Below, piece after piece: positions 9,405 through 64,000 of a stretch of 64,000 nt of DNA (position 1 is the first letter of the stretch; each line of letters starts with the position of its first letter). Source of the DNA: Niastella populi (GTDB lineage Bacteria > Bacteroidota > Bacteroidia > Chitinophagales > Chitinophagaceae). The DNA is taken from assembly GCF_002078015.1 (NCBI RefSeq), contig NZ_LWBP01000001.1, positions 372,001 to 436,000 of the forward strand. Direction: 5' to 3'. Below the pieces are notes generated by a model. It did no database searches. It was not told the DNA's origin and saw only the letters and a list, made by a program, of their open reading frames with translations. Position numbers and translations under genes: made by a program.

Positions 9405-9450
9405 TGTGTATTTCATTATCACATTATCGAATTATCCCATTATCAAATTA
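9405..9450. repeat. Word repeat (TTATCACATTA family) overlapping the stop of the Fe-S protein gene
   Basis: Near-tandem copies of CATTATC/ATTATCC words run into the TAA stop (9448-9450) of the minus-strand Fe-S gene. The same word family recurs at 22273-22314 and, in reverse, around 14700-14880 and 31937-31965. Confidence 0.5.
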
Positions 9451-10230
9451 GTTTTCCATACTCGCTGCTATCAGTTCCGCTACATCCAATACCCTTACCG
9501 TCTCTTCTTTTTCCTTTTGTTTTACGCCATCAGTAAGCATGGTGTTGCAAAACGGACAGGCGGCAGCTACGATGTCCGATCCGGTTTCCAGCGCTTCCTG
9601 AATACGTTCCTGGTTGATACGAACATTTCCTTTTTCTTCTTCCTTGAACATTTGCGCACCGCCGGCGCCGCAACACAAACCTTTCGTTCGGCAACGTTTC
9701 ATTTCAACCAGTTCGGCATCCAGCGCTTCCAGCACCTTGCGCGGCGCTTCATAAATATCATTGGCGCGGCCCAGATAACAACTATCGTGATAGGTAATAC
9801 GCTTTCCTTTAAAGGCGCCGCCTTCTTTCAGGGTTATCTTTCCCTCATCGAGCAGCTGTTGTAAAAAAGTGGTATGGTGAATCACTTCATATGTGCCACC
9901 CAGTTCGGGATATTCGTTTTTGAGAATATTAAAGCAGTGCGGACAAGCCGTTACTATTTTCTTAATACCATAGCCATTCAGGATCTGAATATTCTGGTAG
10001 GCCATCATCTGGAACATAAATTCATTACCCGCCCGCCTGGCCGGGTCGCCGGTACAGCACTCTTCCTTACCCAGCACGGCAAAATTGATCCCCACTTTGG
10101 TAAGAATGGTTGCAAACGCTTTAGTGATCTTTTGCGCCCGCTGGTCAAAACTTCCTGAGCAGCCAACCCAGAACAGTACATCCGGCGGAGTGCCGGCCGC
10201 AATCATTTCAGCAACAGTTCGTATTTGCAT
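9448..10230 (-). CDS. CCG-domain (Fe-S)-binding protein, heterodisulfide-reductase/LldE-like
   Basis: A 260-residue cytoplasmic protein with two CCG cysteine motifs. The first consists of Cys in WVGCSGS, CC in EECCTGD and CPHC. The second consists of Cys in DSCYLGR, CC in GLCCGAGG and CPFC. Each normally binds a non-cubane Fe-S cluster, as in HdrB, GlpC and LldE. The start was set at the Met of MQIRTVAEM (10228-10230) rather than at 10287, because the family begins there and the extra 19 residues look like leader. A partner dehydrogenase or flavoprotein is not adjacent, so the electron donor and acceptor are unknown. Confidence 0.88.
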   Translation of the reverse strand: MQIRTVAEMIAAGTPPDVLFWVGCSGSFDQRAQKITKAFATILTKVGINFAVLGKEECCTGDPARRAGNEFMFQMMAYQNIQILNGYGIKKIVTACPHCFNILKNEYPELGGTYEVIHHTTFLQQLLDEGKITLKEGGAFKGKRITYHDSCYLGRANDIYEAPRKVLEALDAELVEMKRCRTKGLCCGAGGAQMFKEEEKGNVRINQERIQEALETGSDIVAAACPFCNTMLTDGVKQKEKEETVRVLDVAELIAASMEN

Positions 10231-10402
10231 GTGGTATACCGGTTTATGTGCCTCAAATATACAGTTTATGACGGCTAAATCATACACTGTGTAATCATAA
10301 TGCCATTCGTAAACGGGGTATTGACCACCCGTGTATATCTATAACCGCTATATATTGGGGAACAGGTATATTTGACGACCTGAAAACAGACAACTACACA
10401 TC

Positions 10403-11938: not shown

Positions 11939-11940
11939 TT

Positions 11941-12046
11941 GTTTGTGGTTTATGGTTTGTGGTTGTCGTTGCACTTTGCGATTGCCCGATCATTCGCAGG
12001 GTTCACGCATTAAAGAACCATAAACCATAAACTACAAACCATAAAC
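11941..12046. repeat. Complementary word-repeat pair (GTTTATGGTTTGTGG family)
   Basis: The left arm 11941-11966 carries GTTTGTGGTTTATGG words. The right arm 12014-12046 carries the complement (ACCATAAACCATAAAC). Together they can fold into a long imperfect hairpin filling the gap between the convergent S10 and HxlR genes, perhaps acting as a two-way terminator. Confidence 0.6.
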
Positions 12047-12051
12047 TGTAT

Positions 12052-12462: not shown

Positions 12463-12480
12463 ACTGTTAAATTTAGAACC

Positions 12481-12536: not shown

Positions 12537-12551
12537 AGTTAAAGAAATCAT

Positions 12552-13843: not shown

Positions 13844-13958
13844 GTTTATGGTTTATGGTTTGTTGTTTGTGGTTCTTTATTGCAGATGCCAGCAAGGTAT
13901 TGAGATGGCTCAAAATGCGGCAGGCCAACTAGAAACCATAAACAAGAAACCATAAACT
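13844..13958. repeat. Complementary word-repeat pair (GTTTATGG family)
   Basis: The left arm 13844-13875 (GTTTATGGTTTATGG, GTTGTTTGTGG) and right arm 13932-13958 (AACCATAAAC twice) are complementary. The 257-bp gap 13794-14050 holds only this element and the leader of the next gene. Confidence 0.55.
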
Positions 13959-14999: not shown

Positions 15000-15869
15000 A
15001 TGCGAAAGTTTTTGCTCCTTAGTATTCTATGCCCATTAGTAGCCGTATCCCAGCAACGTTTTCACGTAACCTTGTTTGGAGGCCTTTCAAATTATGCAGG
15101 TGATCTGCAGGATCATCAGTTTACCCTGCAGCAATCGAATTTTGCTTTTGGCGCGGGTATCAAATATGACTTCACGCCTCATCTGGCTTTGCGCCTGGCG
15201 TATAATCACGGGTCAATTGAAGGAGACGACAAGCGGAGCGGCGATCCGTTACTGCGCGAGCGAAACCTGAGCTTTGCCTCAAAGATCAATGAAGGCAGCC
15301 TGCTGCTCGAATATACCTTGTTGAATATGGAGGATAGAAAAATTTCTCCCTATATCTACAGCGGCATTACGGTTTTTCACTACAATCCATACGCATACGA
15401 TACTTTGGGAAATAAGGTTTTCCTGAAACCGCTCAGTACGGAAGGGCAGGGGCTTGAACAATACCCCGATCGCAAACCTTACAAACTGACGCAGTTTGCC
15501 ATTCCGGTGGGTGTAGGGGTGAAATTCAGGATCAGCAGCAATACCATCCTGGCGTATGAAATATCAGTACGGAAAACGTTCACCGATTACCTCGATGATG
15601 TGAGTAAAACATATGTCGATCAATTTGCGCTCGGTCAGCAACGTGGCCTGAAAGCCGTATCGATGGCATTCCGCAGCGATGAATTGAAAGGCAGCACGGC
15701 TACCTATCCCGCCGATGGTTCTGTGCGTGGTGGTTCAAAATACGAGGACTGGTATTATTTTACCGGTTTTACCTTATACATTGGAATAGGTTCCGGCAAT
15801 GGCAGCGGCAGCGGCTTTGGCCGTTCAAAGGGCGGAAGGAACAGGCTGGGCTGCCCGAATGTGCTGTAG
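15000..15869 (+). CDS. DUF6089-like outer-membrane beta-barrel protein
   Basis: A 289-residue exported protein with a short signal peptide (MRKFLLLSILCPLVAVSQ). GGLSNYAGDLQD and LRLAYNHGSIEGDD follow, as in the DUF6089/OmpA-like barrel family common in Bacteroidota, with alternating strands through residue about 265. The C-terminus is a Gly/Ser-rich tail (GSGNGSGSGFGRSKGG) rather than a terminal aromatic strand, which is somewhat odd. No known ligand or partner. It is a single gene followed by an intrinsic terminator. Confidence 0.8.
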   Translation: MRKFLLLSILCPLVAVSQQRFHVTLFGGLSNYAGDLQDHQFTLQQSNFAFGAGIKYDFTPHLALRLAYNHGSIEGDDKRSGDPLLRERNLSFASKINEGSLLLEYTLLNMEDRKISPYIYSGITVFHYNPYAYDTLGNKVFLKPLSTEGQGLEQYPDRKPYKLTQFAIPVGVGVKFRISSNTILAYEISVRKTFTDYLDDVSKTYVDQFALGQQRGLKAVSMAFRSDELKGSTATYPADGSVRGGSKYEDWYYFTGFTLYIGIGSGNGSGSGFGRSKGGRNRLGCPNVL

Positions 15870-15942
15870 GAAAGCTGCAAGCCACAAGCTGTAAGCCAAA
15901 AGCCGAAGTCCAAAAGCCAAAGGCCGAAAGCCAAAACTCAAA
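15870..15942. repeat. Word repeat (AAAAGCCGAAAGCC family)
   Basis: About seven near-tandem copies of an AAGCC(A/G)AAA-type word run in one direction. Related words occur at 22830-22898 and 23320-23350. No complementary arm is present here. Confidence 0.5.
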
Positions 15943-16108: not shown

Positions 16109-16269
16109 CCAGCTAATCAGGCTGTCAACCGCCCCCTCATGAGCCTGCCAACTAGTTACCTTATCAACCAGTCAACCAGTCAACTTTTCAACGCCTTCTC
16201 GTGAACCCGCGAACAAGTGAACTTGTTAACCCCGACTTTATCGGGGCAGGCTCTGTGAACTTGTTAACT
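16109..16269. repeat. Word repeats (GTCAACC / GTGAACTTGTTAAC) with central hairpin
   Basis: Several AACCAGTCAACC words are followed by two direct copies of GTGAACTTGTTAAC (16217-16230 and 16255-16268). Between these sits a CCCCGA-CTTTA-TCGGGG hairpin (16230-16246). The block ends just before the UbiD promoter element. Confidence 0.5.
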
Positions 16270-16289: not shown

Positions 16290-18221
16290 ATGTCATTTAG
16301 AAATCAACAACATTTTATCGATACGCTGGAGCAGGCTGGTGAACTGGTGCGTATCAAAGCGTTTGTAGATCCCAAATTAGAAATTGCAGAGATCACAGAT
16401 AGGATTAGTAAAACTACGGGCGGCGGAAAAGCCATCCTGTTTGAGAATACCGGTTACGATTTTCCGGTGCTGATGAACGCATATGGCAGCGAAAAACGCA
16501 TGTGCCTGGCGCTGGGCGTTCAGCATCTCGACGATGTGGCCCGCGAAATAGAAAACCTGTTCAAGCTGCTTGCATCGCCCAAGGAAAGCATAATGGATAA
16601 ATTAAGGGTGCTGCCCAAACTGTCGCAGTTTGCCTCCTGGATGCCAAAAGTAAAAAGCGGCCGCGGCGCCTGCCAGGAAGTAGTGATGGCGCAACCCGAT
16701 ATTTCAAAGCTGCCGGTGATCACCTGCTGGCCAAAAGACGGCGGCCCGTTTGTAACGCTGCCCGTTATTCATACAAAAGATCCCAATACCAATACGCGCA
16801 ACGTAGGCATGTACCGCATGCAGGTGTTCGGCCCAACCCTTACCGGTATGCACTGGCATAAGCATAAAGTAAGTGCGCGCCATTTCAATGAATATAAAAA
16901 GTTAAACAAACGCATGCCGGTGGCGGTAGCGCTTGGGGGCGACCCGGTGTATGCCTATTCGGCTACAGCGCCATTGCCCGATAATGTTGATGAATACATG
17001 CTCGCCGGTTTTCTGCGCAAGAAAAAAGTGGAGCTGGTAAAATGCATTACACAACCCGACATAGAAGTGCCGGCCGATGCCGACTTCGTGATCGAAGGAT
17101 ATGTTGACCCCGGTGACGAAATGATCTGGGAAGGGCCCTTTGGCGATCATACCGGTTATTATTCATTGCCCGACTGGTACCCGCGTTTTCATATTACCGC
17201 CATTACCCATAAAAAAGACCCGGTATATCCTGCAACGATCGTAGGTATTCCACCGCAGGAAGACGCCTGGCTGGGCAAGGCTACCGAACGTATTTTCCTT
17301 GCGCCAATAAAAATGACCATGGTGCCCGAGATCATCGATATGGATATGCCGGTGGAAGGCGTTTTTCATAACCTGGTTATCACCAAGATCAAAAAAGAAT
17401 ATGCCGGCCAGGGACAAAAAGTGATGAACGCCATGTGGGGCGCCGGTCAAATGATGTTCAACAAGATCCTCGTGCTGGCCGATGAAGGCGTTACTATTCA
17501 GAATTACACCAAACTGGCTGAATATGTTTTTGCCAATATGAACCCGGCCACTGATATTTATTTATCTACCGGTCCCATGGATGTGCTTGATCACAGTTGC
17601 AGCAAACTTGGTTTCGGCGGTAAAATGTGCATCGACGGCACAAAGAAGTTCGATGAGGAAACAGAAGATCGTTTTGCATTCCCGATCTTAAGCAACCGCT
17701 TCGATAAACAGGCGTTGATGCAGCAGTTCCCCGAGATCAGGGGCATTAATAATGCTTTGCCTGCCATTCATATTCCCTGTTTAATTATTTCTGTTGAAAA
17801 GAACCGCAAAGGGCATGTGCGCGAACTGCATCAGCAATTATGCGCCACCGGTATGATAGAAGGAATAAAAATGGTATTATATGTAGAACATACCGTTAAT
17901 GCCAATGACCTTCCGGTTGCATTATGGCGTTTCTGCAATAACCTCGATCCCCGCAGGGACAGCATACTGGTGCAGCAGCCCGCCCGCCAGATACCGGGTA
18001 AAACCTGGGCCTGTATGGGTTTTGACGGCACCATAAAAACCGCAGCGCTCGACGATTTTCAGCGCGACTGGCCGAACATCATTGTGGCAGATGATAAAAC
18101 CATAGCATCCGTTGATGCCAAATGGGATCAACTGGGTATTGGTGAATTCATTCCCTCGCCGTCATTGAAGTTCAAGGACCAGATGTATGGGGAGGAAGCG
18201 GTAGTTGTTTCTGGTTTATAG
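16290..18221 (+). CDS. ubiD: UbiD-family prenylated-FMN decarboxylase (menaquinone-type)
   Basis: A 643-residue cytoplasmic decarboxylase that uses prenylated FMN to remove CO2 from an aromatic or similar acid; in menaquinone-making Bacteroidota the homologue is usually assigned to quinone synthesis. The UbiD core is plain: an N-terminal FIDTLEQAGELVRI, then VGMYRMQVFGPTLTGMHWH and WEGPFGDHTGYYSLPDWYP with the catalytic acidic residue near it, and CIDGTKK late in the chain. The length exceeds E. coli UbiD (about 500), as in other members of this branch. No ubiX-type prenyltransferase is adjacent. The 3' end runs into a word repeat that supplies the TAG stop. Confidence 0.92.
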   Translation: MSFRNQQHFIDTLEQAGELVRIKAFVDPKLEIAEITDRISKTTGGGKAILFENTGYDFPVLMNAYGSEKRMCLALGVQHLDDVAREIENLFKLLASPKESIMDKLRVLPKLSQFASWMPKVKSGRGACQEVVMAQPDISKLPVITCWPKDGGPFVTLPVIHTKDPNTNTRNVGMYRMQVFGPTLTGMHWHKHKVSARHFNEYKKLNKRMPVAVALGGDPVYAYSATAPLPDNVDEYMLAGFLRKKKVELVKCITQPDIEVPADADFVIEGYVDPGDEMIWEGPFGDHTGYYSLPDWYPRFHITAITHKKDPVYPATIVGIPPQEDAWLGKATERIFLAPIKMTMVPEIIDMDMPVEGVFHNLVITKIKKEYAGQGQKVMNAMWGAGQMMFNKILVLADEGVTIQNYTKLAEYVFANMNPATDIYLSTGPMDVLDHSCSKLGFGGKMCIDGTKKFDEETEDRFAFPILSNRFDKQALMQQFPEIRGINNALPAIHIPCLIISVEKNRKGHVRELHQQLCATGMIEGIKMVLYVEHTVNANDLPVALWRFCNNLDPRRDSILVQQPARQIPGKTWACMGFDGTIKTAALDDFQRDWPNIIVADDKTIASVDAKWDQLGIGEFIPSPSLKFKDQMYGEEAVVVSGL

Positions 18222-18322
18222 TTTATGGTTTATAGTTGATACCGAATTTCGGAGTGCCCGCTGACTGGCGGGCATTCTGCATGTAGGAATAACAATAAAC
18301 TAAAAACAATAAACTATAAACT
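18212..18322. repeat. Complementary word-repeat pair overlapping the ubiD stop codon
   Basis: The left arm 18212-18237 (GGTTTATAGTTTATGG words) contains the ubiD stop. The right arm 18289-18322 (AACAATAAACTATAAAC words) abuts the stop of the convergent FtsX gene. Between them TGCCCGC/GCGGGCA (18255-18261/18268-18274) forms an inner hairpin. Confidence 0.6.
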
Positions 18323-19752: not shown

Positions 19753-21048
19753 ATGAAAAATATTGTCATATTATTAACTACGCTGATGGCGTTTTCCCGG
19801 GCGGCAACAGCGCAATTGACCGAAGCCGTATTCTATCCGAATATCAAGACCCCCCAGTTATTCCCCTCAGGCAACCAGCTGGGTTATCCGGTGCTGAACC
19901 TGAATGGGAGCGACAGGCTGGAATTACATTTCGACGACCTGGATGCGAATGTCAAAAATTACTCCTATACTTACCAGTTGTGCAATGCCGACTGGACGCC
20001 GGTATTGCTGAGCAGCTTCGATTTTATAAAAGGGTTCTCTTATCAGCGTATCAATACCTATCGAATTTCTTCCATTGCTTTTACCCGCTATACCCATTAC
20101 TCTGCCGTGGTGCCTGAAAATAACTGCGCACCATCGCGCTCGGGTAATTATATTCTCAAAGTTTTTTTGAATGGCGACACCTCAAGAGTGGCATTTACCA
20201 AACGCTTCCTGGTGGTGGATAACCAAACCACCATTAGCGCCCAGATACAACAACCATTCAATGGAGAGATCTTCCGTACCTGGCAAAAGATCCCTTTCCA
20301 GGTTATATTAAGCGATCGCCTGCAGGTGATGAACCATCTGCAGCAGATAAAAGTGGTGATCCTGCAGAATAACCGCTGGAATACTGCACTTGTAAATGTG
20401 CGGCCCACTTTCTTCTCGGGTAAAAAACTTGATTTCAATACCGAAGACCAGATCGTGATGCCGGGTGGAAAGGAGTGGCGCTGGCTCGATCTGCGCAGTT
20501 TTCGCCTGCAAAGCGACCGGGTAGCAAAGGCCAATTACAATGCCCGTTCAACCGAGATCTTCGTAAAACCCGATGTTGACAGAAGCCAGCAGCGTTTTGT
20601 TTATTACCGCGATATAAATGGCATGTATACGATTGAAACAACTGAAAGCATCAACCCTTACTGGCAAACCGATTACGCAACGGTGCACTTTACGTTTATA
20701 CCGCCGGAGAATGTACCTTTTGCCAATAAAGACCTCTTTATAACCGGGCTGTTGACCAATTACAACCTCAACGACAGCGCAAAACTGGTTTTCAATAATG
20801 AAACACGCATGTATGAGAAAACGCTTTTCCTGAAACAGGGTTATTATAATTACAATTATGTGACCATCGATCAGAACGATCCTAAAAGAGTGCCCTCTTA
20901 TGAAAGCACCGAAGGCAATTTCTGGGACACGGAAAACGATTACATGATCCTTGTATATTATAGGGCACTGGCCGGACGCGCCGATGAGTTGGTAGGTCTC
21001 ACGCATGTAAGCTCACTCACCGGAAGAAAAGGAGTGGGGGCGCCATAG
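19753..21048 (+). CDS. Type IX secretion system plug protein (DUF5103)
   Basis: About 431 residues. The signal peptide (MKNIVILLTTLMAFSRAATA) is followed by the DUF5103 N-terminal part (LTEAVFYPNIKTPQLFPSGN, LELHFDDLDA, YQLCNADWTPVLL, FIKGFSYQRINTY), which is the T9SS plug family. In known systems the plug closes the SprA translocon channel when no effector passes. I set the start at the ATG at 19753, since the 36 residues before it lack a signal sequence and lie in repeat-like leader. Other T9SS genes are not in the window. Confidence 0.88.
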   Translation: MKNIVILLTTLMAFSRAATAQLTEAVFYPNIKTPQLFPSGNQLGYPVLNLNGSDRLELHFDDLDANVKNYSYTYQLCNADWTPVLLSSFDFIKGFSYQRINTYRISSIAFTRYTHYSAVVPENNCAPSRSGNYILKVFLNGDTSRVAFTKRFLVVDNQTTISAQIQQPFNGEIFRTWQKIPFQVILSDRLQVMNHLQQIKVVILQNNRWNTALVNVRPTFFSGKKLDFNTEDQIVMPGGKEWRWLDLRSFRLQSDRVAKANYNARSTEIFVKPDVDRSQQRFVYYRDINGMYTIETTESINPYWQTDYATVHFTFIPPENVPFANKDLFITGLLTNYNLNDSAKLVFNNETRMYEKTLFLKQGYYNYNYVTIDQNDPKRVPSYESTEGNFWDTENDYMILVYYRALAGRADELVGLTHVSSLTGRKGVGAP

Positions 21049-21178
21049 CAATATTGAATAATGAATGTTGAATATCGAATGTTGAGGGAAAATGCGGTAA
21101 ATGTTTAAAGATGAATGCGGTAAAATGTTTTTTTTACTTCGAAATTGAAAATTCTTCTGTTCGATATTCAACATTTTC
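21049..21178. repeat. Word repeats (GAATGTTGAATATCG) with complementary arm
   Basis: TTGAATAATGAATGTTGAATATCG words at about 21053-21085 are complementary to GATATTCAACATTTTCC at about 21162-21178. They sit directly before the SRP RNA promoter. Confidence 0.5.
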
Positions 21179-21179: not shown

Positions 21180-21187
21180 TACATTTG
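21180..21187 (+). promoter_or_regulatory. -7 promoter element of the SRP RNA gene
   Basis: TACATTTG is a perfect TAnnTTTG match ending 5 nt before the SRP RNA 5' end. The -33 region is weak. Confidence 0.6.
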
Positions 21188-21192
21188 CATCC

Positions 21193-21287
21193 GGCAGGTC
21201 TTACACGACCAGCTCCCGCTGAACCCCCCCAGGGCCGGAAGGCAGCAAGGGTAGGTGGTTGTAGCGGTGCGATGTAAATCGCCTGCC
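21193..21287 (+). ncRNA. ffs: Signal recognition particle RNA, small bacterial (4.5S) type
   Basis: This is the RNA scaffold of the signal recognition particle, which binds Ffh for co-translational membrane targeting. The conserved apical domain is clear: CCAGGGCCGGAAGGCAGCA with the GGAA tetraloop at 21236-21239, and the internal loop GCAGCA/AGGGTAGG on the 3' side. The ends GGCAGG (21193-21198) and CCTGCC (21282-21287) pair and close a rod of about 95 nt. A TAnnTTTG element lies just upstream and a T-rich terminator (21288-21301) just downstream. Exact ends are estimated from the pairing. This is among the safest calls in the window. Confidence 0.95.
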
Positions 21288-21430
21288 TTTTTTCTTTTTT
21301 TTGGAGTGTACGAAAGATTACAATTGAATGGCTCCGAATATACTGCATGACTCTTGATGACGGTTCCGTCGAAATACCAGCTCGCTCAATCATTACTTCA
21401 TCAATTACGCCTAATAACAATGCAAATTCG

Positions 21431-22740: not shown

Positions 22741-22829
22741 CGTATAAAAGGTATATTGTCTTATTGTTAGACTATAACGTACCTACCTGGGTTGTGTTGT
22801 TGAGTATAAATTCATGTTAAAGAAATTAA

Positions 22830-22898
22830 GCCTAAAGCTGAAAGCCGAAGGCAAATACAGCTAAAAGCCTAAAGCTGAAAGTTGAAAGCAAATACAGC
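22830..22898. repeat. 37-bp tandem duplication of AAAGCTGAAAG words
   Basis: GCCTAAAGCTGAAAG at 22830-22844 recurs at 22867-22881, and GCAAATACAGC at 22851-22861 recurs at 22888-22898. A 37-bp unit is therefore duplicated in the gap 22741-22981. No gene is seen in the gap. Confidence 0.6.
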
Positions 22899-23296: not shown

Positions 23297-23839
23297 AGCA
23301 AAATGGGATTGATTATTAAATGCTTAATGCTTAAGGCTGAAGGCTTAAGGCATTGTCCTCTCTGCGAATGTCCTGTAAAAATCGTACCTCTCTTTCGGCT
23401 GCATTTCAGCGGCGCATGAGGAATTTGGGACCACCTGCAACTACGGGGTTTTGCGTTTGGCGTTGTGCGTTCCGCGTTCAGCGTTCGTTAAGTTAATGTA
23501 TAATAGCGAGGTAACAATGGAGAAAATCCTGACTTCCTGCTGCATTTTAGTGATGCTTCGGAAAACAGGACTGCTGAACTTTCGGCATCTGGCGTTCCGC
23601 GTTAAGCGTTTTGCGTTCAGCTTTTAATTCACATTTATCTTTAATATCTCCAATTCATACAGGTACGGTCAAATCAGGCGTTATTCACCTGGTTACGCAC
23701 AAGATATTAACATTTATAAACACCATTTCACAGGCTTTATTCCACAAAAGTGCACAACTTTTGAGGCTATATAGCGTAAGCGGCACTATTTTGTATCGCT
23801 ATTTGTTATTTTTGTCGTTTCCTAAAATAAATCCAACAA
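23297..23839. other. 543-bp gap before smc, with word repeats and promoter
   Basis: The gap holds AAGGCTGAAGGCTTAAGG (about 23331-23348), then GCGTTCCGCGTTCAGCG words at about 23467-23490 and 23590-23620, with no supported gene. TATTTTTG at 23807-23814 is a -7 match 26 bp before the smc start. The -33 element is unclear. Confidence 0.45.
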
Positions 23840-27392: not shown

Positions 27393-27448
27393 AAGTGTGC
27401 CACACCTTCAAGGTGTGGCACACTTATTCATGGTGTGGCACACTTATT
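27393..27448. terminator. Palindromic hairpin with an extra third arm after smc
   Basis: AAGTGTGCCACACCTT (27393-27408) pairs with AAGGTGTGGCACACTT (27410-27425). A second copy of the right arm (GGTGTGGCACACTTATT) follows at 27432-27448. The left arm can pair with either copy. Confidence 0.6.
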
Positions 27449-27644
27449 TTCAAGTTCAGTTTGCACGCTTTTATGCTAAAAGTGCACACTTTTAGCCCAA
27501 ATCTGCACAGATATGAATTCGTACAATAAAATATGATTACCTGTTTTATTTTTGCCGCACCTTTCAGTAACTCTCCACAAATAGCCATGAATCGTAAATT
27601 ACTGAAGGTCCCATTTGCGATATTTTTTTTGCAATGGTTGAAAA

Positions 27645-31929: not shown

Positions 31930-31993
31930 AAACCAATGTGCTGATTTGCTAATGTGATAATTGGATATTGAAATGCATGAACGCGTAGTTCCT

Positions 31994-32045
31994 GCCTTGA
32001 TGCGTTGTTGCCTCGATGGCTCGTTGCCTCGATGCCTTGTTGCCT
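31994..32045. repeat. Word repeat (TGCCTCGATGCCTTGTTGCC)
   Basis: Near-tandem copies of GTTGCCTCGATG words end right before the stop of the minus-strand transglutaminase-like gene. They are the complement of the AAGGCAACGAGGC words at 50380 and 60174. Confidence 0.55.
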
Positions 32046-32049
32046 TATT

Positions 32050-35071: not shown

Positions 35072-35202
35072 GATTTCTGATTTCCGGATTTTGAGATTTT
35101 GAGATTTGTAAAACAACGATTTGGGATTGCTGACCTGGGCATCTCGGGATTTTGAAATTTATAAGACAGTTGAATAAGAAGAAATCTCCAAATCAGAAAT
35201 CT
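35072..35202. repeat. Complementary word-repeat pair (GATTTTGAGATTT family) after ku
   Basis: The left arm 35072-35108 (GGATTTTGAGATTTTGAG) and right arm 35179-35202 (GAAATCTCCAAATCAGAAATC) are complementary. They fill most of the 272-bp gap to the next gene. Confidence 0.6.
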
Positions 35203-38689: not shown

Positions 38690-38695
38690 TTATCT

Positions 38696-38745
38696 GGTTT
38701 GTTGTTTGTTGTTTGTGGTTTGTGGTTTGTGGTTAGCGCCTTATC
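38696..38745. repeat. Word repeat (GTTTGTTGTTTGTGG) before ligD
   Basis: Tandem TTTGTGG/TTTGTTG words lie just upstream of the ligD start. Unlike most other blocks this one is on the 5' side of the gene. Confidence 0.5.
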
Positions 38746-51799: not shown

Positions 51800-52963
51800 A
51801 TGTCAAACATTTTAATTATCGACGACGAAAAAGCGATCCGTAAAACACTCAGTGAGATCCTTTCCTATGAAGGCTATAAAATTGAAGAGGCCGGCGATGG
51901 AGAAGAAGGTCTCAAAAAATTTAAAGAGAAAGCGTATGATGTAGTGTTGTGTGATATCAAAATGCCCAAACTGGATGGTATTGAATTTTTAGATAAAGCC
52001 CGCGAGGCAAATCCCGATGTACCGGTGATCATGATCAGCGGCCACGGTACAATTGAAACAGCCGTTGAGGCTGTTAAAAAGGGCGCTTACGATTATATTT
52101 CGAAGCCACCCGATCTCAACCGCCTCCTGATAACCATTCGCAATGCGATGGATAAGAACAACCTGGTTACCGAAACCAGGGTACTTAAGCGCAAGGTGAG
52201 CAAGGTGGAAGAAATGATCGGCGAATCGGCGCCCATCGTAAAGATCAAAGAAACCATCGATAAAGTGGCGCCTACCGACGCCCGTATTCTGGTAACCGGT
52301 GAAAACGGGGTGGGTAAGGAACTGGTAGCCCGCTGGGTGCATGAAAAAAGCAACCGTGCTGCCGGTCCGCTCGTTGAAGTTAACTGCGCGGCCATTCCCA
52401 GTGAGCTGATAGAAAGCGAACTGTTCGGTCATGAAAAAGGTTCTTTTACCTCAGCCGTTAAGCAACGGATTGGTAAGTTTGAACAGGCGCACGGCGGTAC
52501 GCTTTTCCTCGATGAAATTGGCGATATGAGCCTGAGCGCTCAGGCCAAGGTATTACGTGCATTGCAGGAAGGAAAGATAACGCGGGTAGGGGGCGATAAA
52601 GATATCAGTGTAGATGTACGGGTGATAGCGGCTACCAATAAAGACCTGTTGAAAGAAGTGGATGACAAAAACTTTCGTCTCGACTTATACCATCGGCTTA
52701 GCGTTATTATCATTCATGTGCCTTCACTGAACGATCGCCGCGAAGACATTCCCTTACTGGTCGATAAATTCCTGGCCGATATCTGTGCCGATTATGGAAT
52801 TCCCAAAAAAGGCATTGAGAAAGAGGCACTGGATGCCTTGAAACAACATAACTGGACGGGCAACATCCGCGAGCTGCGTAACGTGGTAGAGCGGTTGATC
52901 ATCCTCTCGGGCAAAAACATTATTCCCGATGATGTACATGCGTATGTAGTTCCCAAAAGGTAG
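51800..52963 (+). CDS. NtrC-like AAA+ response regulator lacking a DNA-binding domain
   Basis: 387 residues. The receiver (1-120) has phospho-acceptor Asp52 in LCDIKMPK. The AAA+ part (about 140-370) has Walker A GENGVGKE (167-174), Walker B GGTLFLDEI (232-240), and GSFTSA (214-219) where sigma-54 contact loops have GAFTGA. The chain ends at HAYVVPKR with no Fis-type helix-turn-helix. It may act from solution on sigma-54 or have lost sigma contact. No kinase is adjacent. Confidence 0.92.
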   Translation: MSNILIIDDEKAIRKTLSEILSYEGYKIEEAGDGEEGLKKFKEKAYDVVLCDIKMPKLDGIEFLDKAREANPDVPVIMISGHGTIETAVEAVKKGAYDYISKPPDLNRLLITIRNAMDKNNLVTETRVLKRKVSKVEEMIGESAPIVKIKETIDKVAPTDARILVTGENGVGKELVARWVHEKSNRAAGPLVEVNCAAIPSELIESELFGHEKGSFTSAVKQRIGKFEQAHGGTLFLDEIGDMSLSAQAKVLRALQEGKITRVGGDKDISVDVRVIAATNKDLLKEVDDKNFRLDLYHRLSVIIIHVPSLNDRREDIPLLVDKFLADICADYGIPKKGIEKEALDALKQHNWTGNIRELRNVVERLIILSGKNIIPDDVHAYVVPKR

Positions 52964-53008
52964 TTAACTGGTTGACGAGTTAACTAGTTAACCAGTTAAC
53001 TCGTCAAC
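52962..53008. repeat. Word palindrome (AGTTAACTGGTT / GTTGACGAGTTAACT) filling a convergent gap
   Basis: Two alternative stems share sequence: 52962-52973 with 52990-53001 (12 bp) and 52971-52985 with 52994-53008 (15 bp). The block spans the end of the AAA+ regulator gene and the stop (53004-53006) of the MerR gene. Confidence 0.7.
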
Positions 53009-53930
53009 TTGCTGTAATTAATTCAGTCTTTCCTTCTTTAAGAAAGGCTTTCTTTTCTTCTATAGTTTTCAATAACCTCACATTTTTCAGATCGCAACTG
53101 CACTGGCAGGCCTCGGGGCCTGAAAAAACGATCTCTTTGTCGGGGAACATGATACTGAACTGCTTCAGGTATTCATGCATGTCGCATTTGTTCAGGTTGG
53201 GAATGATGAGGAAATACAATTGCGTAACGTGGTGTTGGGAGCAGATCAGCTGCAACATATCGAGCGGAACGTTCTTACCCATATAAATGGCCGGCACCCT
53301 TTCCTTCTTTAACATGTAATGCATAAAGAGCAGCGGTAATTCCTGGCATTCGCCGCCCGGCATATCGTGGTGGTCACCCGCCGGGGTGAACAACAGTACC
53401 CGCCGGCCGCCGGTATATGCAGTTTTTTCCAACCCGTCGATGGCCACCATCATTTTTTTAATGATGAGCGAACGGGCAAAATGGGCATGCGCCTGTATTA
53501 ACTGGCCGGTAAGCCATAAAACCCCGATCTTCTTTAGAAACGGGAATAATACGCAGATCATGCTTTTTTCAAAACCGGCATGCAATACCAGGTTGTGCAA
53601 TATTTTATCGAACCGCGGCTGGTCGAGGTCGAGCGTGGCTTCGGTAAGCTGATTGATGAAGATTTCGTAATTATCCGAATCGGGTTTTGCTTCGAGGGCC
53701 ATCCTGGCCATTTCTTCGGGCGAACAGCAGGCGATTTGTGAAATTTTATGTCCCTGGTTATACAGGTAAGCTATGCGTAAAAGGTGCTTTAAGTCCTCGC
53801 AATCATAGAAACGGTGTTTGCTTTCCCTGCGTTTTGGGCAGAAAAGGTTGTAACGCTGTTCCCAGATGCGCAGGGTATGCGCCTTGATGCCCGTTAAGTT
53901 TTCAATATCCCGGATAGAAAAGAGATTCAT
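53004..53930 (-). CDS. MerR-family regulator with a B12-binding-like domain
   Basis: 308 residues. The MerR helix-turn-helix is at 1-70 (SIRDIENLTGIKAHTLRIWEQRYN, RFYDCEDLKHLLRIAYLY). A CarH-like helical part and a Rossmann-type cobalamin domain follow. The usual E/DxHxxG ligand motif is changed: the segment reads GDHHDMPGGECQELPLLF, with Gln and Pro where the aligned His and Gly are expected. B12 binding is therefore doubtful. It converges with the AAA+ regulator gene. Confidence 0.85.
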   Translation of the reverse strand: MNLFSIRDIENLTGIKAHTLRIWEQRYNLFCPKRRESKHRFYDCEDLKHLLRIAYLYNQGHKISQIACCSPEEMARMALEAKPDSDNYEIFINQLTEATLDLDQPRFDKILHNLVLHAGFEKSMICVLFPFLKKIGVLWLTGQLIQAHAHFARSLIIKKMMVAIDGLEKTAYTGGRRVLLFTPAGDHHDMPGGECQELPLLFMHYMLKKERVPAIYMGKNVPLDMLQLICSQHHVTQLYFLIIPNLNKCDMHEYLKQFSIMFPDKEIVFSGPEACQCSCDLKNVRLLKTIEEKKAFLKEGKTELITAS

Positions 53931-54110: not shown

Positions 54111-55700
54111 ATGAGTTTACACGATCTGTTGATTATCATATTGGTATCCCTACTAATTCTGATATTGCCTGCCTATGGTCTTGCGAAATTATTCGAAAAA
54201 GCCGGTATTCCCTCCTGGAAGGCCTGGGTACCGTTCTATAACACCTGGGAAATTATAAAGGTTGCCAAAATCAAAAAACATTGGTATTTCTGGCAATTTA
54301 TTCCGGTTGCAGGGTGGTTCATCAGCATTTGGTTACTGGTTGAATTTGTTAAATTATTCGGAAGATTCAAATTACTCGATCATGCGGCGGCGGCCCTTTT
54401 ATCGGTGGTGTACTTCCCCATGATCGGCATGGATAAAAAAGTAAAGTACCTTGGCCCCGAGGCGGTAAAGAACCACAAGAAAACCACGGTGCGCGAATGG
54501 ATAGATGCCGGTGTTTTTGCTGTTGTGGCGGCTACCCTTATTCGCGTTTTTGTTTTTGAAGCGTATACCATTCCCACCGGTTCAATGGAGAAAACCCTGC
54601 TGGTGAACGATTTTCTGTTCGTAAGCAAGCTGAGCTACGGTCCGCGCATACCCAATACGCCGCTGGCCATTCCGTTTGTGCATCACACGCTGCCCATTAC
54701 TAATTCGAAATCATATACCGAAGTCATTCACCTGCCTTATACGCGCTGGTTTGCCAGTCCGGTCAAGCGCAATGACGTGGTGGTGTTCAACTTCCCGGCA
54801 GGCGATACGCTTACCAAAGAACGTGATTCGCAGGATCCGTATTACGATATGCTGTTGCAGGCAGAAATGGAGCAGTACAGCATCCTGAGATCACAAATAC
54901 CCAATGAAGCACAACTGCGCGCCGTTGCCAAAGAAAATGCCCGCGAATATGTATGGAGCAATTTTACGGTAATCACCCGGCCGGTCGACAAACGGGAGAA
55001 CTATATCAAACGTTGCGTGGCCATTGCCGGCGATACCATCCAGATCATTGACGGGTATTTATATGTAAACAGCCAGAAAGCTTATATTTCACCAACCGCT
55101 GCCGCCGAGTATGTGGCAACTGTTGCCAATAATAAATTACTGACGGAAGAAGACCTGCGGGAAGCCGGCGTTCGGCTTACTTCGGAGGCGAACAGCGCGC
55201 CCGATTTTGAACCCACTGGCGTTAACACCTATAAGCTCAATCTTACCGAAAATGAACTGGCGATCGTGAAAAAAATGGATGGGGTGGTATCGGTGACCCG
55301 TAAGGTAGAAGAGGTTGGCGATCCGCGCATATTCCCACGCGATACAGCGAATATTTTGTGGAGTGTTGACAATTTCGGTCCCTTGTGGATCCCTAAAAAA
55401 GGAGTTACCATTCAGTTGACACCTAAAAATATCGCCTGTTATAAACGCGCTATCAGGGTGTATGAGAACAATACCTGGGAAGACCGGGATGGTAAGATCT
55501 TCATCAACGGCCAGGAAACTACAACCTATACTTTTAAAATGAACTATTACTGGATGATGGGTGATAACCGCCATCGTTCGCAGGACAGCCGTTTTTGGGG
55601 TTTTGTACCTGAAGACCACATTGTAGGCGAGGCCTGGCTGATTTGGATGAGTTGGGAAAATGGCGTTCGCTGGAACCGGATGTTCAGAACAATACATTAA
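54111..55700 (+). CDS. lepB: Signal peptidase I (long Bacteroidota form)
   Basis: A 529-residue inner-membrane protease that removes signal peptides. The N-terminus is a DUF5684-like membrane part (three helices to about 110). The peptidase domain has nucleophile Ser158 in PTGSMEKTL and general base Lys300 in YIKRCVAIAGD. The C-terminal conserved box MMGDNRHRSQDSRFWG is complete. An insertion of about 90 residues between these boxes (KAYISPTAAAEY onward) is normal for the phylum. A single gene with its own -7 element. Confidence 0.95.
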   Translation: MSLHDLLIIILVSLLILILPAYGLAKLFEKAGIPSWKAWVPFYNTWEIIKVAKIKKHWYFWQFIPVAGWFISIWLLVEFVKLFGRFKLLDHAAAALLSVVYFPMIGMDKKVKYLGPEAVKNHKKTTVREWIDAGVFAVVAATLIRVFVFEAYTIPTGSMEKTLLVNDFLFVSKLSYGPRIPNTPLAIPFVHHTLPITNSKSYTEVIHLPYTRWFASPVKRNDVVVFNFPAGDTLTKERDSQDPYYDMLLQAEMEQYSILRSQIPNEAQLRAVAKENAREYVWSNFTVITRPVDKRENYIKRCVAIAGDTIQIIDGYLYVNSQKAYISPTAAAEYVATVANNKLLTEEDLREAGVRLTSEANSAPDFEPTGVNTYKLNLTENELAIVKKMDGVVSVTRKVEEVGDPRIFPRDTANILWSVDNFGPLWIPKKGVTIQLTPKNIACYKRAIRVYENNTWEDRDGKIFINGQETTTYTFKMNYYWMMGDNRHRSQDSRFWGFVPEDHIVGEAWLIWMSWENGVRWNRMFRTIH

Positions 55701-55736
55701 TGGTTTGTAGTTTGCGGTTTGTGGTTTGTGGTTTGA
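55701..55736. repeat. Word repeat (GGTTTGTGGTTTGTGG) right after lepB
   Basis: Copies of TTTGTGGTTTGTGG begin at the lepB stop. No complementary arm is close by. Confidence 0.5.
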
Positions 55737-59118: not shown

Positions 59119-59120
59119 GT

Positions 59121-61405: not shown

Positions 61406-61738
61406 TCAGCCTATCTTCCAGCCGTTTTGAACCGGCCGGTCGGGTGCTAGTAAAACTACCTCTTTTTTATCAGTGTAAATGCCCAGCACCAGGCATTCGC
61501 TGAAAAAATTAGCGATCTGTTTGGGGGGAAAATTAACAATGGCGATCACCTGCCTGCCGATCAGCGATCCCTGCTCGTATAATTGCGTTATCTGGGCCGA
61601 TGACTTTTTGATACCCAATTCACCAAAATCGATGGTTATTTGGTACGCCGGGTTTTTGGCTTTGGGAAAATTATTAACTTCCGTAATTGTTCCGACCCTG
61701 ATATCTATTTTTGCGAAATCATCCCATGTGATGTGCAT
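61406..61738 (-). CDS. csaA: tRNA-binding-domain protein CsaA
   Basis: A 110-residue OB-fold protein similar to CsaA, a dimeric chaperone-like tRNA-binding protein. ITWDDFAKIDIRVGTITEVN, KKSSAQITQLYEQGSLIGRQ, VIAIVNFPPKQIANFFSEC and VLLAPDRPVQNGWKIG match the family. It is divergent from osmC with a 34-bp gap, so the two may share a control region. Confidence 0.92.
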   Translation of the reverse strand: MHITWDDFAKIDIRVGTITEVNNFPKAKNPAYQITIDFGELGIKKSSAQITQLYEQGSLIGRQVIAIVNFPPKQIANFFSECLVLGIYTDKKEVVLLAPDRPVQNGWKIG

Positions 61739-61752
61739 GCTCTTAATTTTTT

Positions 61753-61760
61753 CAAAAATA
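61753..61760 (-). promoter_or_regulatory. -7 element of csaA
   Basis: On the minus strand this reads TATTTTTG, a TAnnTTTG match. It would give a leader of only about 8 nt before the csaA start. No -33 element is clear. Confidence 0.4.
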
Positions 61761-61772
61761 AATTACAATTAA

Positions 61773-62183
61773 ATGAAACGTACAGCTACTGCCGTTTGGA
61801 ACGGCTCAGGAAAAGAAGGTAATGGACATTTGACCTCACAAAGCACTACATTGAACAAAACGCAGTATTCGTACAAGTCACGGTTTGAAGAAGGTGTTGG
61901 AACCAACCCCGAAGAGTTGATCGCTGCCGCACATGCCGGTTGTTTTGCCATGAAGCTGAGCTTTGTATTGGGTGGCGCTGGTTTTACACCCGATTCACTG
62001 GATGTAACTTCTACCGTTACCCTCGATAATGGTGCTATCACCAATTCGCACCTGGTGCTGAAGGCAAGCGTTCCCGGCATCAGCGCTGAAAAATTTAAAG
62101 AGTGCGCCGATGATGCCAAGGCTAACTGTCCGGTTAGTAAAGTACTGAACGCAGAGATCACTTTGGAAGCATCTCTGGTATAA
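61773..62183 (+). CDS. osmC: OsmC-family peroxiredoxin
   Basis: A 136-residue organic hydroperoxide reductase. The reactive pair is Cys57 in AAHAGCFAMKLSF and Cys119 in NCPVSKVLNA, and SRFEEGVGTNPEELIAA is typical of OsmC. It defends against peroxides from lipids. The short divergent gap with csaA suggests shared control, but no regulator site is obvious. Confidence 0.93.
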   Translation: MKRTATAVWNGSGKEGNGHLTSQSTTLNKTQYSYKSRFEEGVGTNPEELIAAAHAGCFAMKLSFVLGGAGFTPDSLDVTSTVTLDNGAITNSHLVLKASVPGISAEKFKECADDAKANCPVSKVLNAEITLEASLV

Positions 62184-62224
62184 AGCGTTAACCGTATATA
62201 ACAATGATCTGTGATGTAAGAATA

Positions 62225-62317
62225 TGAGATTTCGGGATTTCGCGATTTAGGGATTTTGAGATTTGTCGTAAGACTTAATTCAAAAGAAATCTCAAAATCG
62301 CGAAATCTCAAAATCAG
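62225..62317. repeat. Complementary word-repeat pair (GGATTTTGAGATTTC family)
   Basis: The left arm 62225-62265 (GAGATTTCGGGATTTCGCG) and right arm 62285-62317 (GAAATCTCAAAATCGCGAAA) can fold into a long imperfect hairpin between osmC and the oxidoreductase. It is the clearest such pair. Confidence 0.7.
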
Positions 62318-62402
62318 CAATTGTCGTCCTGCCTTCCCTTCGCGATCTTAAGAACCGAATGTTTCCTTTTCTCCTTAGCCTTTGCAAAAAATGCGATAAG
62401 AT

Positions 62403-63818
62403 ATGTCCTCAAACAAACGAACCCGGCGCAGCTTTATCAAAAATGCCTCACTGGCCGCCGGCAGTTTCTTCATTGTGCCACGCCATGTATTAGGCCGGGG
62501 CTATATTGCCCCCAGCGATAAACTCAATATCGCCGGCATAGGCGCCGGTGGCAAGGCCGAAGTGAATTTGCCCTACGCTTATAACAATGGCGCAGAGAAC
62601 ATAACCGCACTTTGCGATGTTGACGACCGTATGGCGGTGAATGCCCGCAAAAAATGGCCGCAGGCGCCTTATTACCGCGACTACCGCGAAATGCTCGATA
62701 AAGAACATAAAAATATCGACGCCGTAATTATTACCACTCCCGATCACATGCATGCCGTACAGGCCCTTGCAGCCATGCAGCTGGGCAAACATGTGTATGT
62801 TGAGAAACCACTAACGCACGACATTTACGAGGCCCGCATATTAACGCAGGCCGCACAACAGTATAAAGTGGTTACGCAAATGGGTAACCAGGGCAGCAGC
62901 GGTGATGACACCCGCATCGTGGAGACCTGGATCCAGGCAGGGGTGATCGGCAACGTACATACAGTGCATGTATGGACGAACCGCCCCGTTTGGCCGCAAG
63001 GCGTTCCAACGCCCACCGGTAAATTCGATATTCCGAAAGAAGTTGACTGGGACCTGTGGCTGGGCACTGCACCCTTCCGCGATTTCAATCCTGCTTATTT
63101 GCCCGCCACCTGGCGCGGCTGGGTCGATTTTGGTGCCGGCGCCCTCGGCGATATGGGCTGCCATTTTATTGACGTGCCGTTCAGGGCGCTGAAACTGGGA
63201 TACCCGGTATCGGTAGCCTGCAGTGTGGGTTCGGTATACACGGGTTTTTTCAGAGAAGCAATTTATAACGACAGCTATCCGCCTTCATCGAAGATCAATA
63301 TCCATTTTCCGGCCCGCGGGGAAAAAATGCCGCCGGTAGAGCTGATCTGGTACGATGGCGGTATACAACCCGATCGCCCCGCAGAGTTATTGCCCGACGA
63401 ACCTTTTGCCGGGCCAGACGGCGGTATCCTGTTTGAAGGAACAAAAGGCAAACTGCTGGCCGGGTTGTTTGGCCGCAATCCTACCTTGCTGCCGACACAA
63501 AAAATGAAAGAAGTAAAACTGCCCAAATCAAAATTTCCGTTTGTTGATAATGGAACAGAAGGTCACCAGACGCAATGGGTGCAGGCCTGCAAAAAAGGTT
63601 TCGGAACTTATACCAGTTCTTCCTTCGATGTGGCCGGACCGCTTACTGAAACCGTACTGATGGGCAACCTGGCAGTTAGAAGTTATAATATTAAAGAAGG
63701 AAACAATTTCCCCGGCCGTAAAAAGCTCCTGTGGGATGGTGCCAATATGCGCATCACCAATTTTGAAGCGGCGAATGCGTTTGTGAAGCGGGAGTACCGG
63801 CAGGGGTATAAGTTATAG
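62403..63818 (+). CDS. Tat-exported Gfo/Idh/MocA-family oxidoreductase
   Basis: 471 residues. The N-terminus SNKRTRRSFIKNASLAAGSF is a twin-arginine signal. The Rossmann fold follows with GIGAGGKAEVNL, then TPDHMHAVQALAAMQLGKHV and VEKPLTHD, the family box with the catalytic Lys. The middle and C-terminal parts (about 170-440) form the dimer beta-sheet. It is an NAD(P)-type sugar or inositol oxidoreductase exported folded, as often found in Bacteroidota; the substrate is not known. Confidence 0.92.
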   Translation: MSSNKRTRRSFIKNASLAAGSFFIVPRHVLGRGYIAPSDKLNIAGIGAGGKAEVNLPYAYNNGAENITALCDVDDRMAVNARKKWPQAPYYRDYREMLDKEHKNIDAVIITTPDHMHAVQALAAMQLGKHVYVEKPLTHDIYEARILTQAAQQYKVVTQMGNQGSSGDDTRIVETWIQAGVIGNVHTVHVWTNRPVWPQGVPTPTGKFDIPKEVDWDLWLGTAPFRDFNPAYLPATWRGWVDFGAGALGDMGCHFIDVPFRALKLGYPVSVACSVGSVYTGFFREAIYNDSYPPSSKINIHFPARGEKMPPVELIWYDGGIQPDRPAELLPDEPFAGPDGGILFEGTKGKLLAGLFGRNPTLLPTQKMKEVKLPKSKFPFVDNGTEGHQTQWVQACKKGFGTYTSSSFDVAGPLTETVLMGNLAVRSYNIKEGNNFPGRKKLLWDGANMRITNFEAANAFVKREYRQGYKL

Positions 63819-64000
63819 TTCTCAGTTCTCAGTTCACAGTTCACAGTTCACAGGTCTCGGTTATTCAGTTATTCAGTTATTCAGTTATTCAGTTTGTGAG
63901 TTGCCGGTTACCAGATACCTGTTTCCGGAAATGAGATCAGGCCCTTCGGGCTCCAATAACTTCGTCGCTTGTCGCCCTTCGGGCTCCAATAACTGAATAA
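63819..64000. repeat. Word repeats and a duplicated GC-rich unit at the window end
   Basis: CAGTTCACAGTTCACAG words and four TTATTCAG copies (about 63861-63892) face AATAACTGAATAA at the edge. GCCCTTCGGGCTCC appears at 63941 and 63974, each with its own CCC-TTC-GGG hairpin. The element is cut by the window end. Confidence 0.55.

What the first reader, a model, noticed from the sequence alone, without database searches (positions are those of the whole stretch)
9405..64000. Window-wide word repeats, often with complementary arms
At least a dozen gaps hold near-tandem 8-14 bp words. In several (11941-12046, 13844-13958, 18212-18322, 35072-35202, 52962-53008, 62225-62317) a later arm carries the complementary word, so the gap can fold into a long imperfect hairpin. 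Each locus mostly has its own word, but families recur across loci. This differs from simple REP or IS-derived repeats, in which one fixed unit spreads. A process that copies and inverts short words locally, or selection for long leaky terminators, could explain it.
Basis: partly seen in the sequence, partly recalled or inferred. Interest (0 to 1): 0.75.

Follow-up and report, generated by a model that had tools for sequence, protein, structure and literature searches.

The report
Repeated-word hairpins at bacterial gene ends
Many genes in this bacterium and some of its Bacteroidota relatives end in hairpins built from 7- or 8-letter DNA words, and between species the words often change while the hairpin, its place and its repeat length stay, which suggests a little-known kind of gene-end signal.

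Summary
In 464 kb of this genome near-tandem repeats of 7 or 8 bp fill gaps (54 and 32 segments; about 0 in shuffles and genes), with almost none at 3-6, 10, 12 or 13 bp. Nine species of the genus agree. Arrays cluster at stop codons and avoid divergent gaps; 194 of 406 have a complementary arm, 9 after shuffling. The arm at the stop is G-rich, the far arm C-rich. At orthologous gaps array hairpins recur twice as often as expected (142 vs 68), yet 70 of 142 pairs use different words. Gene ends with an array hairpin hold fewer U-tract terminators (6 of 91 vs 83 of 394; Flavobacterium 0 of 14 vs 80 of 203). Similar arrays occur patchily in other Bacteroidota. Heptamer repeats are known; my searches found no report of this 3'-end, inverted, multi-word, word-swapping form. 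Best reading: U-less 3'-end hairpins standing in for terminators, built by slippage and template switching. Selection on RNA pairing was tested and not seen, so function is inferred.

The parts
11941..12046 (.). Array hairpin between convergent genes: GTTTRTG arm 11941-11964, spacer, complementary arm 12016-12046; fills the gap 11939-12051
   Evidence: fold z -7.9
13844..13957 (.). Array hairpin: GTTTATG arm 13844-13874, complementary arm 13927-13957
   Evidence: fold z -5.5
18207..18321 (.). Array hairpin between convergent genes: GTTTATR arm 18207-18241 (overlaps the stop codon at 18219-18221), GC-rich inner stem, complementary arm 18288-18321
   Evidence: fold z -7.1
35079..35202 (.). Array GATTTNNN 35079-35107 with a later, partly complementary stretch at about 35181-35202 (by eye)
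   Evidence: fold z only -2.35
52961..53009 (.). Self-complementary 8-bp array (GTTAACNN) filling the 40-bp gap 52964-53003 between convergent genes
   Evidence: fold z -6.1
62228..62315 (.). Array hairpin: GATTTNGR arm 62228-62264, AAATCNNN arm 62286-62315
   Evidence: fold z -7.0; arm words differ in the orthologous gaps of G002, G003, G004
9414..9450 (.). 8-bp array CATTATCA
15871..15936 (.). 7-bp array AAGCYNN directly after the stop codon that ends at 15869; no hairpin (fold z 0.84)
16164..16192 (.). 8-bp array TCAACCAG
21050..21085 (.). 7-bp array AATRTTG directly after the stop codon that ends at 21048
22828..22898 (.). 7-bp AAAGCYN words inside a 37-bp duplication
23319..23351 (.). 7-bp array AAGGCTT
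23448..23486 (.). 7-bp array GCGTTNN
31993..32046 (.). 8-bp array TGCCTNGN
38695..38734 (.). 7-bp array GTTTGTG; no second array called, but the stretch folds better than shuffles (z -4.35)
55701..55735 (.). 7-bp array GTTTGTG directly after the stop codon that ends at 55700; no hairpin (fold z 0.39)
63819..63902 (.). 7-bp array TTCACAG followed by 8-bp array TCAGTTAT; the TAACTGAA word returns in opposite orientation from 63988

Best explanation
These are gene-3'-end elements: a G-rich (C-poor) array of 7- or 8-bp words starts at the stop codon and, in about half the cases, pairs with a C-rich complementary array after a spacer (middle half of 58 cases about 20-54 bp). The result is a long hairpin without a U tract. 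The hairpin stands in for an intrinsic terminator; most likely it blocks 3'-to-5' exonucleases and so defines the RNA 3' end after RNA polymerase has stopped by another route, and between convergent genes it serves both. Selection keeps the architecture (place, period, polarity, complementarity), not the sequence. The arrays are born and resized by slippage at a 7-8 bp step, arms are matched and spacers inverted by template switching, and words then spread or converge within each genome, so each species has its own vocabulary. Shown here: period, place, polarity, complementarity, word turnover, shortage of terminators, species vocabularies. Inferred: the 3'-end function, the exonuclease step, the slippage origin, the route of spread.
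For: Strict 7/8 period, intergenic only. Placement: the first array after a stop lies within 0-4 nt in 108 of 275 3' ends; arrays in 20 of 166 divergent gaps against 179 of 457 tandem and 48 of 138 convergent; 143 of 253 array starts fall between -9 and +7 of the stop. Complementary arm for 194 of 406 arrays against 9 in shuffled surroundings; 61 of 159 neighbouring array pairs are inverted matches against 5.5% of 3,497 random pairs. Polarity: genus near-stop G>C 112 to 16, far 45 to 127, p about 1e-27; G018 p 9e-4; five Flavobacterium p 2e-5; RUG312 p 0.013; array GC skew +0.40 next to the stop, -0.24 at 90-130 nt, non-array bases about 0. Array hairpins recur at orthologous gaps, 142 pairs against 68 expected, with different words in 70. 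Gene ends with array plus arm have a classical terminator in 6 of 91 against 83 of 394 without array, p 8e-4; Flavobacterium 0 of 14 against 80 of 203; the detector fires on 20 of 298 reversed sequences. Spacer inverted between G006 and G007 at 18222. Stable 3' hairpins without arrays lean the same way in tandem gaps, 75 to 22.
Against: Mismatches between arms are no more often G.U than A.C on the transcribed strand: 98 vs 117, near-stop only 63 vs 61; selection on RNA pairing is not detected. About half of the arrays have no detectable arm yet also sit at stops (arm in 63 of 134 near-stop arrays, 121 of 243 farther ones), and those without arm have a less clear shortage of terminators (7 of 64, p 0.06). 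In G018 the terminator test shows nothing (2 of 4 vs 2 of 10; 0 of 9 vs 3 of 15). Galbibacter has 7/8-bp arrays without this architecture (arm in 1 of 17, 1 of 17 near a stop, 7 in divergent gaps). Arms are not locally coupled beyond their family. Folding z of 3' regions with arrays (-2.60) is hardly lower than without (-2.26). Some word groups show no strand preference (CAATNGG 18:17, GTTAAC 19:16, TAGC 14:9) and GCGTT runs the other way (0:3). No transcript data exist here. Ortholog pairs are not independent (61 gap groups, one pivot genome).
Confidence: 0.45

Rival explanations
1. Purely mutational: 7-8 bp slippage tracts (long simple sequence repeats) that arise anywhere and survive only in gaps, with quasi-palindrome template switching making some inverted; no function.
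For: Heptamers are reported as the commonest long simple repeats in most genomes studied and have been linked to the length of DNA touching the polymerase (work of Mrazek as told in PMC4679880 and PMC4692102). Unit number changes between close Flavobacterium species at gap 17976. Spacer inversion at 18222. No G.U excess. Arrays without arms are common, and Galbibacter has arrays without the 3'-end architecture.
Against: Does not predict the pile-up at the stop codon, the polarity in four lineages, the recurrence of array hairpins at orthologous gaps with other words or the shortage of terminators. Part of the pile-up could come from arrays that create the stop codon themselves.
Confidence: 0.27
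2. Binding sites: each conserved core of 4-5 nt plus a variable 2-3 nt is one protein footprint on RNA or DNA, and a multimeric or multi-domain binder (for example an RRM protein) sets the 7-8 nt period; the genome's vocabulary follows the binder.
For: Variation is concentrated in columns: mean z 2.34 over 234 arrays, 44% above 2. Species-specific vocabularies. Strict strand orientation of the GTTTNTG (34:0) and AATGTGAT (17:0) families near stops. MacGregor proposed a repeat-binding protein for TAACTGA.
Against: Many unrelated cores coexist in one genome, which one binder hardly explains. The top RbpB motif reported in Bacteroides is 41 nt long, and the passages seen mention no heptad (passages only).
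Confidence: 0.13
3. Mobile REP- or MITE-like hairpins dispersed by a domesticated Y1 (HUH) transposase.
For: Each of 10 genomes of the genus has one strong Y1 match; in the four loci read it is a 143-aa gene at the same place. Families recur genome-wide with fixed arm order (15 of 15 close opposite pairs that I counted by hand among the places listed for G006 and G003 run GATTT then AAATC). In G003 a pair of arrays is repeated head to tail.
Against: Y1 presence does not track arrays: G011 has one strong Y1 but 0 arrays in 47 gaps; array-rich G018 has a copy broken by stops and a 30.7-bit match, array-bearing G059 only a 36-bit match. Spacers differ between family members at the gaps read by eye, so no fixed unit spreads. 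Words differ at occupied orthologous sites.
Confidence: 0.08

Closest known systems
Heptameric simple sequence repeats of bacteria: TAACTGA repeats of Beggiatoaceae, cyanobacteria and five Bacteroidetes (MacGregor 2015, PMC4679880); GGGAATC repeats of Xanthomonas and GGGGA(C/T)T of Nostoc (Rehm 2015, PMC4692102)
   Same: Intergenic, tandem, 7-bp unit, several copies. The TAACTGAA word itself occurs here (63860-63902). Rehm reports conserved positions 1-4 and 6 in the unit, some inverted pairs, and length and sequence variation between close species at the same genes.
   Different: Each paper follows one word or word family, though MacGregor notes other heptamers mixed in; here one genome holds many words. 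8-bp units make up 133 of 406 arrays. Arrays start at stop codons, whereas most TAACTGA sets of the BOGUAY genome lie just upstream of start codons. Paired arms with polarity, word replacement at an occupied gap and the shortage of intrinsic terminators are not in the parts I read.
Cyanobacterial STRR sequences
   Same: Heptamer tandem repeats between genes (mainly recalled; search listing only).
   Different: No 3'-end hairpin architecture known to me.
REP / BIME elements
   Same: Extragenic palindromes with proposed roles in RNA stability and termination (abstract starts in a search listing).
   Different: REPs are a fixed unit linked to a transposase; here the unit word varies and the hairpin is made of tandem words.
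Intrinsic (Rho-independent) terminators
   Same: Hairpin just after the stop codon, shared between convergent genes.
   Different: Hardly ever a U tract (1 of 47); long stem made of repeats.
Template-switch evolution of hairpins (PMC8794818, PMC8604942)
   Same: Reverse-complement arms, arm matching, spacer inversion (abstracts).
   Different: The abstracts concern RNA genes and yeast coding DNA, not tandem 7/8-bp arms in bacterial gaps.

Membership tests
Heptameric simple sequence repeats (LSSR / STRR) | Tandem units of about 7 bp, more than chance, mostly intergenic | tested here: met
   54 segments at lag 7 and 32 at lag 8 against 0.2 and 0.4 shuffled; coding scaled 0 and 0.17
Heptameric simple sequence repeats (LSSR / STRR) | One or a few fixed words per genome (as in the published cases I read) | tested here: not met
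   140 arrays with many different consensus words in 464 kb
REP / BIME | One conserved palindromic unit per family, with a RAYT transposase | tested here: not met
   Words and spacers vary; Y1 genes do not track arrays
REP / BIME | Location at gene 3' ends, depleted in divergent gaps (recalled feature) | tested here: met
   20 of 166 divergent against 179 of 457 tandem and 48 of 138 convergent gaps
Intrinsic terminator | Hairpin after the stop codon | tested here: met
   Five of six cited gaps fold with z of about -5.5 or lower; 91 near-stop array hairpins in the genus
Intrinsic terminator | U tract directly after the hairpin | tested here: not met
   5 or more T of 8 after 1 of 47 stable array hairpins, 25 of 141 without array; 0 of 58 spacers hold a hairpin plus TTTT
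Intrinsic terminator | Causes transcript 3' ends | not testable with these tools
   No RNA data
Conserved structured RNA | Pairing kept at RNA level (G.U tolerated, A.C not) | tested here: not met
   98 G.U vs 117 A.C in tandem gaps; 63 vs 61 near stops in tandem gaps
Known Rfam RNA | Match above gathering score at the arrays | tested here: not met
   Only Bacteroidales small SRP at 21185-21292 in the window

The most novel reading that the evidence does not exclude
A sequence-free class of gene-end signal in Bacteroidota: what is inherited is a rule (7- or 8-bp words, G-rich arm at the stop, C-rich arm after a spacer) rather than a sequence, with each species filling it from its own vocabulary, kept uniform by a genome-wide copying process or a fast-evolving trans-acting factor. 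It replaces U-tract terminators in lineages that have it.
Probability: 0.3. Interest if true: 0.88.

Novelty: new variant of a known kind. Interest (0 to 1): 0.66.

Why it matters
Heptamer repeats in bacteria have been reported for years without an agreed function. Here many words in one genus can be compared at the same gaps: place, period, polarity and pairing persist while the word is often swapped. That turns an unexplained repeat class into a testable hypothesis about how RNA 3' ends are made without a U tract, and gives a natural record of slippage and template switching. Array-rich and array-free genera of the same family (G018 and the window's genus against G011 and G015) offer a direct contrast.

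Tried and rejected
Chance or composition: rejected by dinucleotide shuffles and by coding-sequence controls.

Simple IS-derived or REP-type dispersal: no fixed unit; the Y1 transposase does not track array abundance.

RNA-level selection by G.U against A.C: tested twice, null.

Local arm-to-arm copying as the sole source of complementarity: null in 41 testable hairpins of 66.

A link to Rho was considered (far arms are C-rich and G-poor), but the first arm is the opposite of a rut site, so I did not build on it. Mismatch repair as the reason for the lower limit of 7 bp was an idea from general knowledge and was not tested.

Systematic loop inversion: one clear case; the other inverted hits that beat the direct one look palindromic or array-like.

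Rows dropped or flawed: L084 reads as N only (GC 0.00), and L094, L102 and L133 give equal counts at nearly all lags, which I attribute to runs of N; I ignored those rows. The 20-kb samples of other genera are too small for absence claims. The G060 sample is biased because its contigs were chosen for carrying the word. G062 and G065 were reached through the same word but have few arrays (5 and 1). Flavobacterium gaps were read only where the pivot G173 has both neighbours in common.
Full report
What was checked. The window is G000:C1:372001-436000 of an 8.6-Mb genome of unnamed species. The congener G006 has a contig of exactly the length of Longitalea arenae SYSU D01084 scaffold 1, a Chitinophagaceae. 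I recall, without a call, that the single 9,033,684-bp contig of G005 fits Niastella koreensis. I called genes with a hexamer model in 464 kb of the own genome and in about 100 kb (63 kb for G009) of syntenic DNA from each of eight of the nine congeners found (G008 is fragmentary and was left out). That gives 761 gaps of 30 bp or more.

Period. In 239 own gaps (67 kb) near-tandem segments occur 54 times at lag 7 and 32 times at lag 8, against 0.2 and 0.4 in shuffles and 0 and 0.17 in coding sequence scaled to the same length. Lags 3-6 give 0, 0, 0, 2; lag 9 gives 6, 11 gives 3, 10 and 13 give 0, 12 gives 1. All nine genomes examined repeat this spectrum. Pooled, 433 arrays were called, 406 of period 7, 8 or 9; one round of shuffling of all gaps gave 2 arrays. 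Arrays occupy 74 of 239 own gaps at a lower threshold. Within arrays some columns are fixed and others vary: mean z 2.34, above zero in 90% of the 234 arrays with at least 4 units and 3 mismatches.

Place. In the nine genomes, 179 of 457 tandem, 48 of 138 convergent and 20 of 166 divergent gaps carry arrays; the first array after a stop begins within 0-4 nt in 108 of 275 3' ends. When the search is extended into the gene, 143 of 253 starts fall between -9 and +7 of the stop, and the stop codon is often part of the first unit. Some of this pile-up could come from arrays that create the stop codon, since 7- and 8-bp units run through all frames.

Arms and polarity. 194 of 406 arrays have a complementary stretch within 150 bp against 9 after shuffling the surroundings; 61 of 159 neighbouring arrays are inverted matches, against 5.5% of 3,497 random pairs from the same genome (29 of 159 are direct matches, against 6.0%). 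The arm next to the stop is G-rich and the far arm C-rich: near-stop G>C 112 to 16, far 45 to 127. Array GC skew falls from +0.40 to -0.24 while other gap bases stay near zero. GTTTNTG near stops occurs 34 times in sense and never in antisense, AATGTGAT 17 to 0; but CAATNGG 18:17, GTTAAC 19:16 and TAGC 14:9 are not oriented, and GCGTT is 0:3. In a partial genome-wide listing of the GATTTNNN family, the 15 close opposite pairs that I counted by hand for G006 and G003 all run GATTT first. Stable 3' hairpins without arrays lean the same way in tandem gaps (75 to 22) and weakly in convergent ones (66 to 45).

Turnover. Across 1,387 orthologous gap pairs (61 gap groups; mean protein identity of the relatives to the own genome 80-85%), arrays are shared in 354 against 214 expected, and the word in the same orientation matches in 118 of 354 against 8% by chance. 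Array hairpins are shared in 142 against 68 expected, and in 70 of these the words differ in both orientations. At 62184 the own gap uses GATTTCGG with GAAATCTC, G002 TATGAAG with TCTTACT, G003 AAGTAGC with CTACTCG, G004 TAGGAAG with TACTTCC. At 18222 the 45-nt spacer of G006 matches the reverse complement of that of G007 (17.5 inverted, 5.5 direct). In Flavobacterium species with about 93-96% identical proteins, gap 17976 keeps its word while unit number and spacer change.

Vocabulary. AAACCATAAACCATAAAC: 22 in G000, 14 in G003, 16 in G006, 14 in G007, 0 in the other six genomes of the genus. GCAATAG x3: 24 in G004, 2 in G006, 0 in eight. ATTATCAC: 29, 42, 49, 27 and 9 in G000, G006, G007, G002 and G005, 0 in five. 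GATTTNNN x4: from 0 in the incomplete G008 to 250 in G007; the backward control gave 0 to 2. In 41 testable hairpins of 66, arms pair no better with their partner than with same-family arms elsewhere. Together this points to genome-wide sharing of words rather than only local copying.

Function. Regions after stops fold well with or without arrays (mean z -2.60 and -2.26; regions before starts -0.73 and -0.54), but a U tract follows only 1 of 47 stable array hairpins against 25 of 141 without arrays (counted where an 8-nt tail was available). Classical terminators are scarcer where an array is present: convergent 8 of 54 vs 41 of 130 (p 0.03), tandem 7 of 120 vs 42 of 264 (p 0.005); five Flavobacterium tandem 0 of 14 vs 60 of 160 (p 0.003), convergent 0 of 3 vs 20 of 43 (p 0.25); G018 2 of 4 vs 2 of 10 and 0 of 9 vs 3 of 15, not significant. 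Split by arm in the genus: array with arm 6 of 91, weak arm 2 of 19, no arm 7 of 64 (p 0.06), no array 83 of 394; Flavobacterium 0 of 14 with arm, 0 of 3 without arm, 80 of 203 without array. A simpler detector gave 6 of 48 convergent gaps with arrays and 25 of 88 without. The detector fires on 20 of 298 reversed sequences, so array ends are near background. I read this as array hairpins doing the job of intrinsic terminators. Against this, mismatches between arms are as often A.C as G.U on the transcribed strand, so the RNA pairing is not visibly selected.

Spread. An exact 25-bp string of the AAACCAT word occurs in at least 116 stretches of the species-genome collection (the scan stopped at its limit); of the 80 loci listed, 66 bear Bacteroidota names by my reading of the titles. 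Samples of other genera show 7/8-bp arrays in G018 (27 arrays in 80 kb, 12 with arm), Flavobacterium daemonense (14 in 100 kb, 12 with arm), a rumen Bacteroidales, RUG312 (55 in 149 kb, 10 with arm, biased sample) and Galbibacter orientalis (17 in 100 kb, 1 with arm, 7 in divergent gaps, so not the same architecture), few in G062 and G065 (5 and 1), and none in G011 and G015 (47 and 42 gaps) of the window's family. Outside the genus, 31 of 67 first arrays start between -10 and +9 of the stop. Polarity recurs in G018 (p 9e-4), five Flavobacterium species (p 2e-5) and RUG312 (p 0.013); Galbibacter is too small to tell.

Known work. Heptamer repeats are a known class (PMC4679880: abstract, sections 3, 10 and 24 and passages; PMC4692102: passages). 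Those papers follow one word or word family; TAACTGA sets in the BOGUAY genome lie mostly upstream of starts, and GGGAATC in Xanthomonas has some inverted pairs. Template switching between inverted repeats that matches arms and inverts spacers is known from yeast and RNA genes (PMC8604942, PMC8794818; abstracts). My paper searches listed no report of arrays of this form in Niastella, Flavobacterium or other Bacteroidota; most subscription papers are not held, and supplements were not searched.

Noticed in passing
window 21185-21292 (+): Bacteroidales small SRP RNA (RF04183, 100 bits), in the gap whose start carries the array 21050-21085.
   Followed up: no
window 27395-27509; orthologous gaps of 52964-53003 in G006 and G007: A second palindrome family with GTGTGGCACAC / GTGCCACACC in the window and in short hairpin gaps of relatives; not made of 7/8-bp words.
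   Followed up: no
L214-L217: A Y1 (HUH) transposase gene of 143 aa, the only strong copy per genome, lies at the same place in the four congeners read, between genes that look by eye like DAHP synthase and 3-dehydroquinate synthase (no family search run); looks domesticated.
   Followed up: partly
Flavobacterium gaps in L223-L227 and L258-L277: A palindrome like CCCGATAGCTATCGGG recurs by eye in or near the spacers of array hairpins.
   Followed up: no
G003 gap orthologous to window-frame 73342-73630: A pair of arrays (GAATATT and AATGAAA words) is repeated three to four times head to tail with a period near 95 bp; whether the two arrays pair with each other was not tested.
   Followed up: no
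long G000 array printed (AATACAG ... CTGAAAG ... AACCGAA): The word changes along the array while the 7-bp phase is kept, as if the step length were enforced independently of the letters.
   Followed up: no
window 63930-64000: Direct repeat GCCCTTCGGGCTCCAATAACT downstream of the 63819-63902 arrays (by eye).
   Followed up: no
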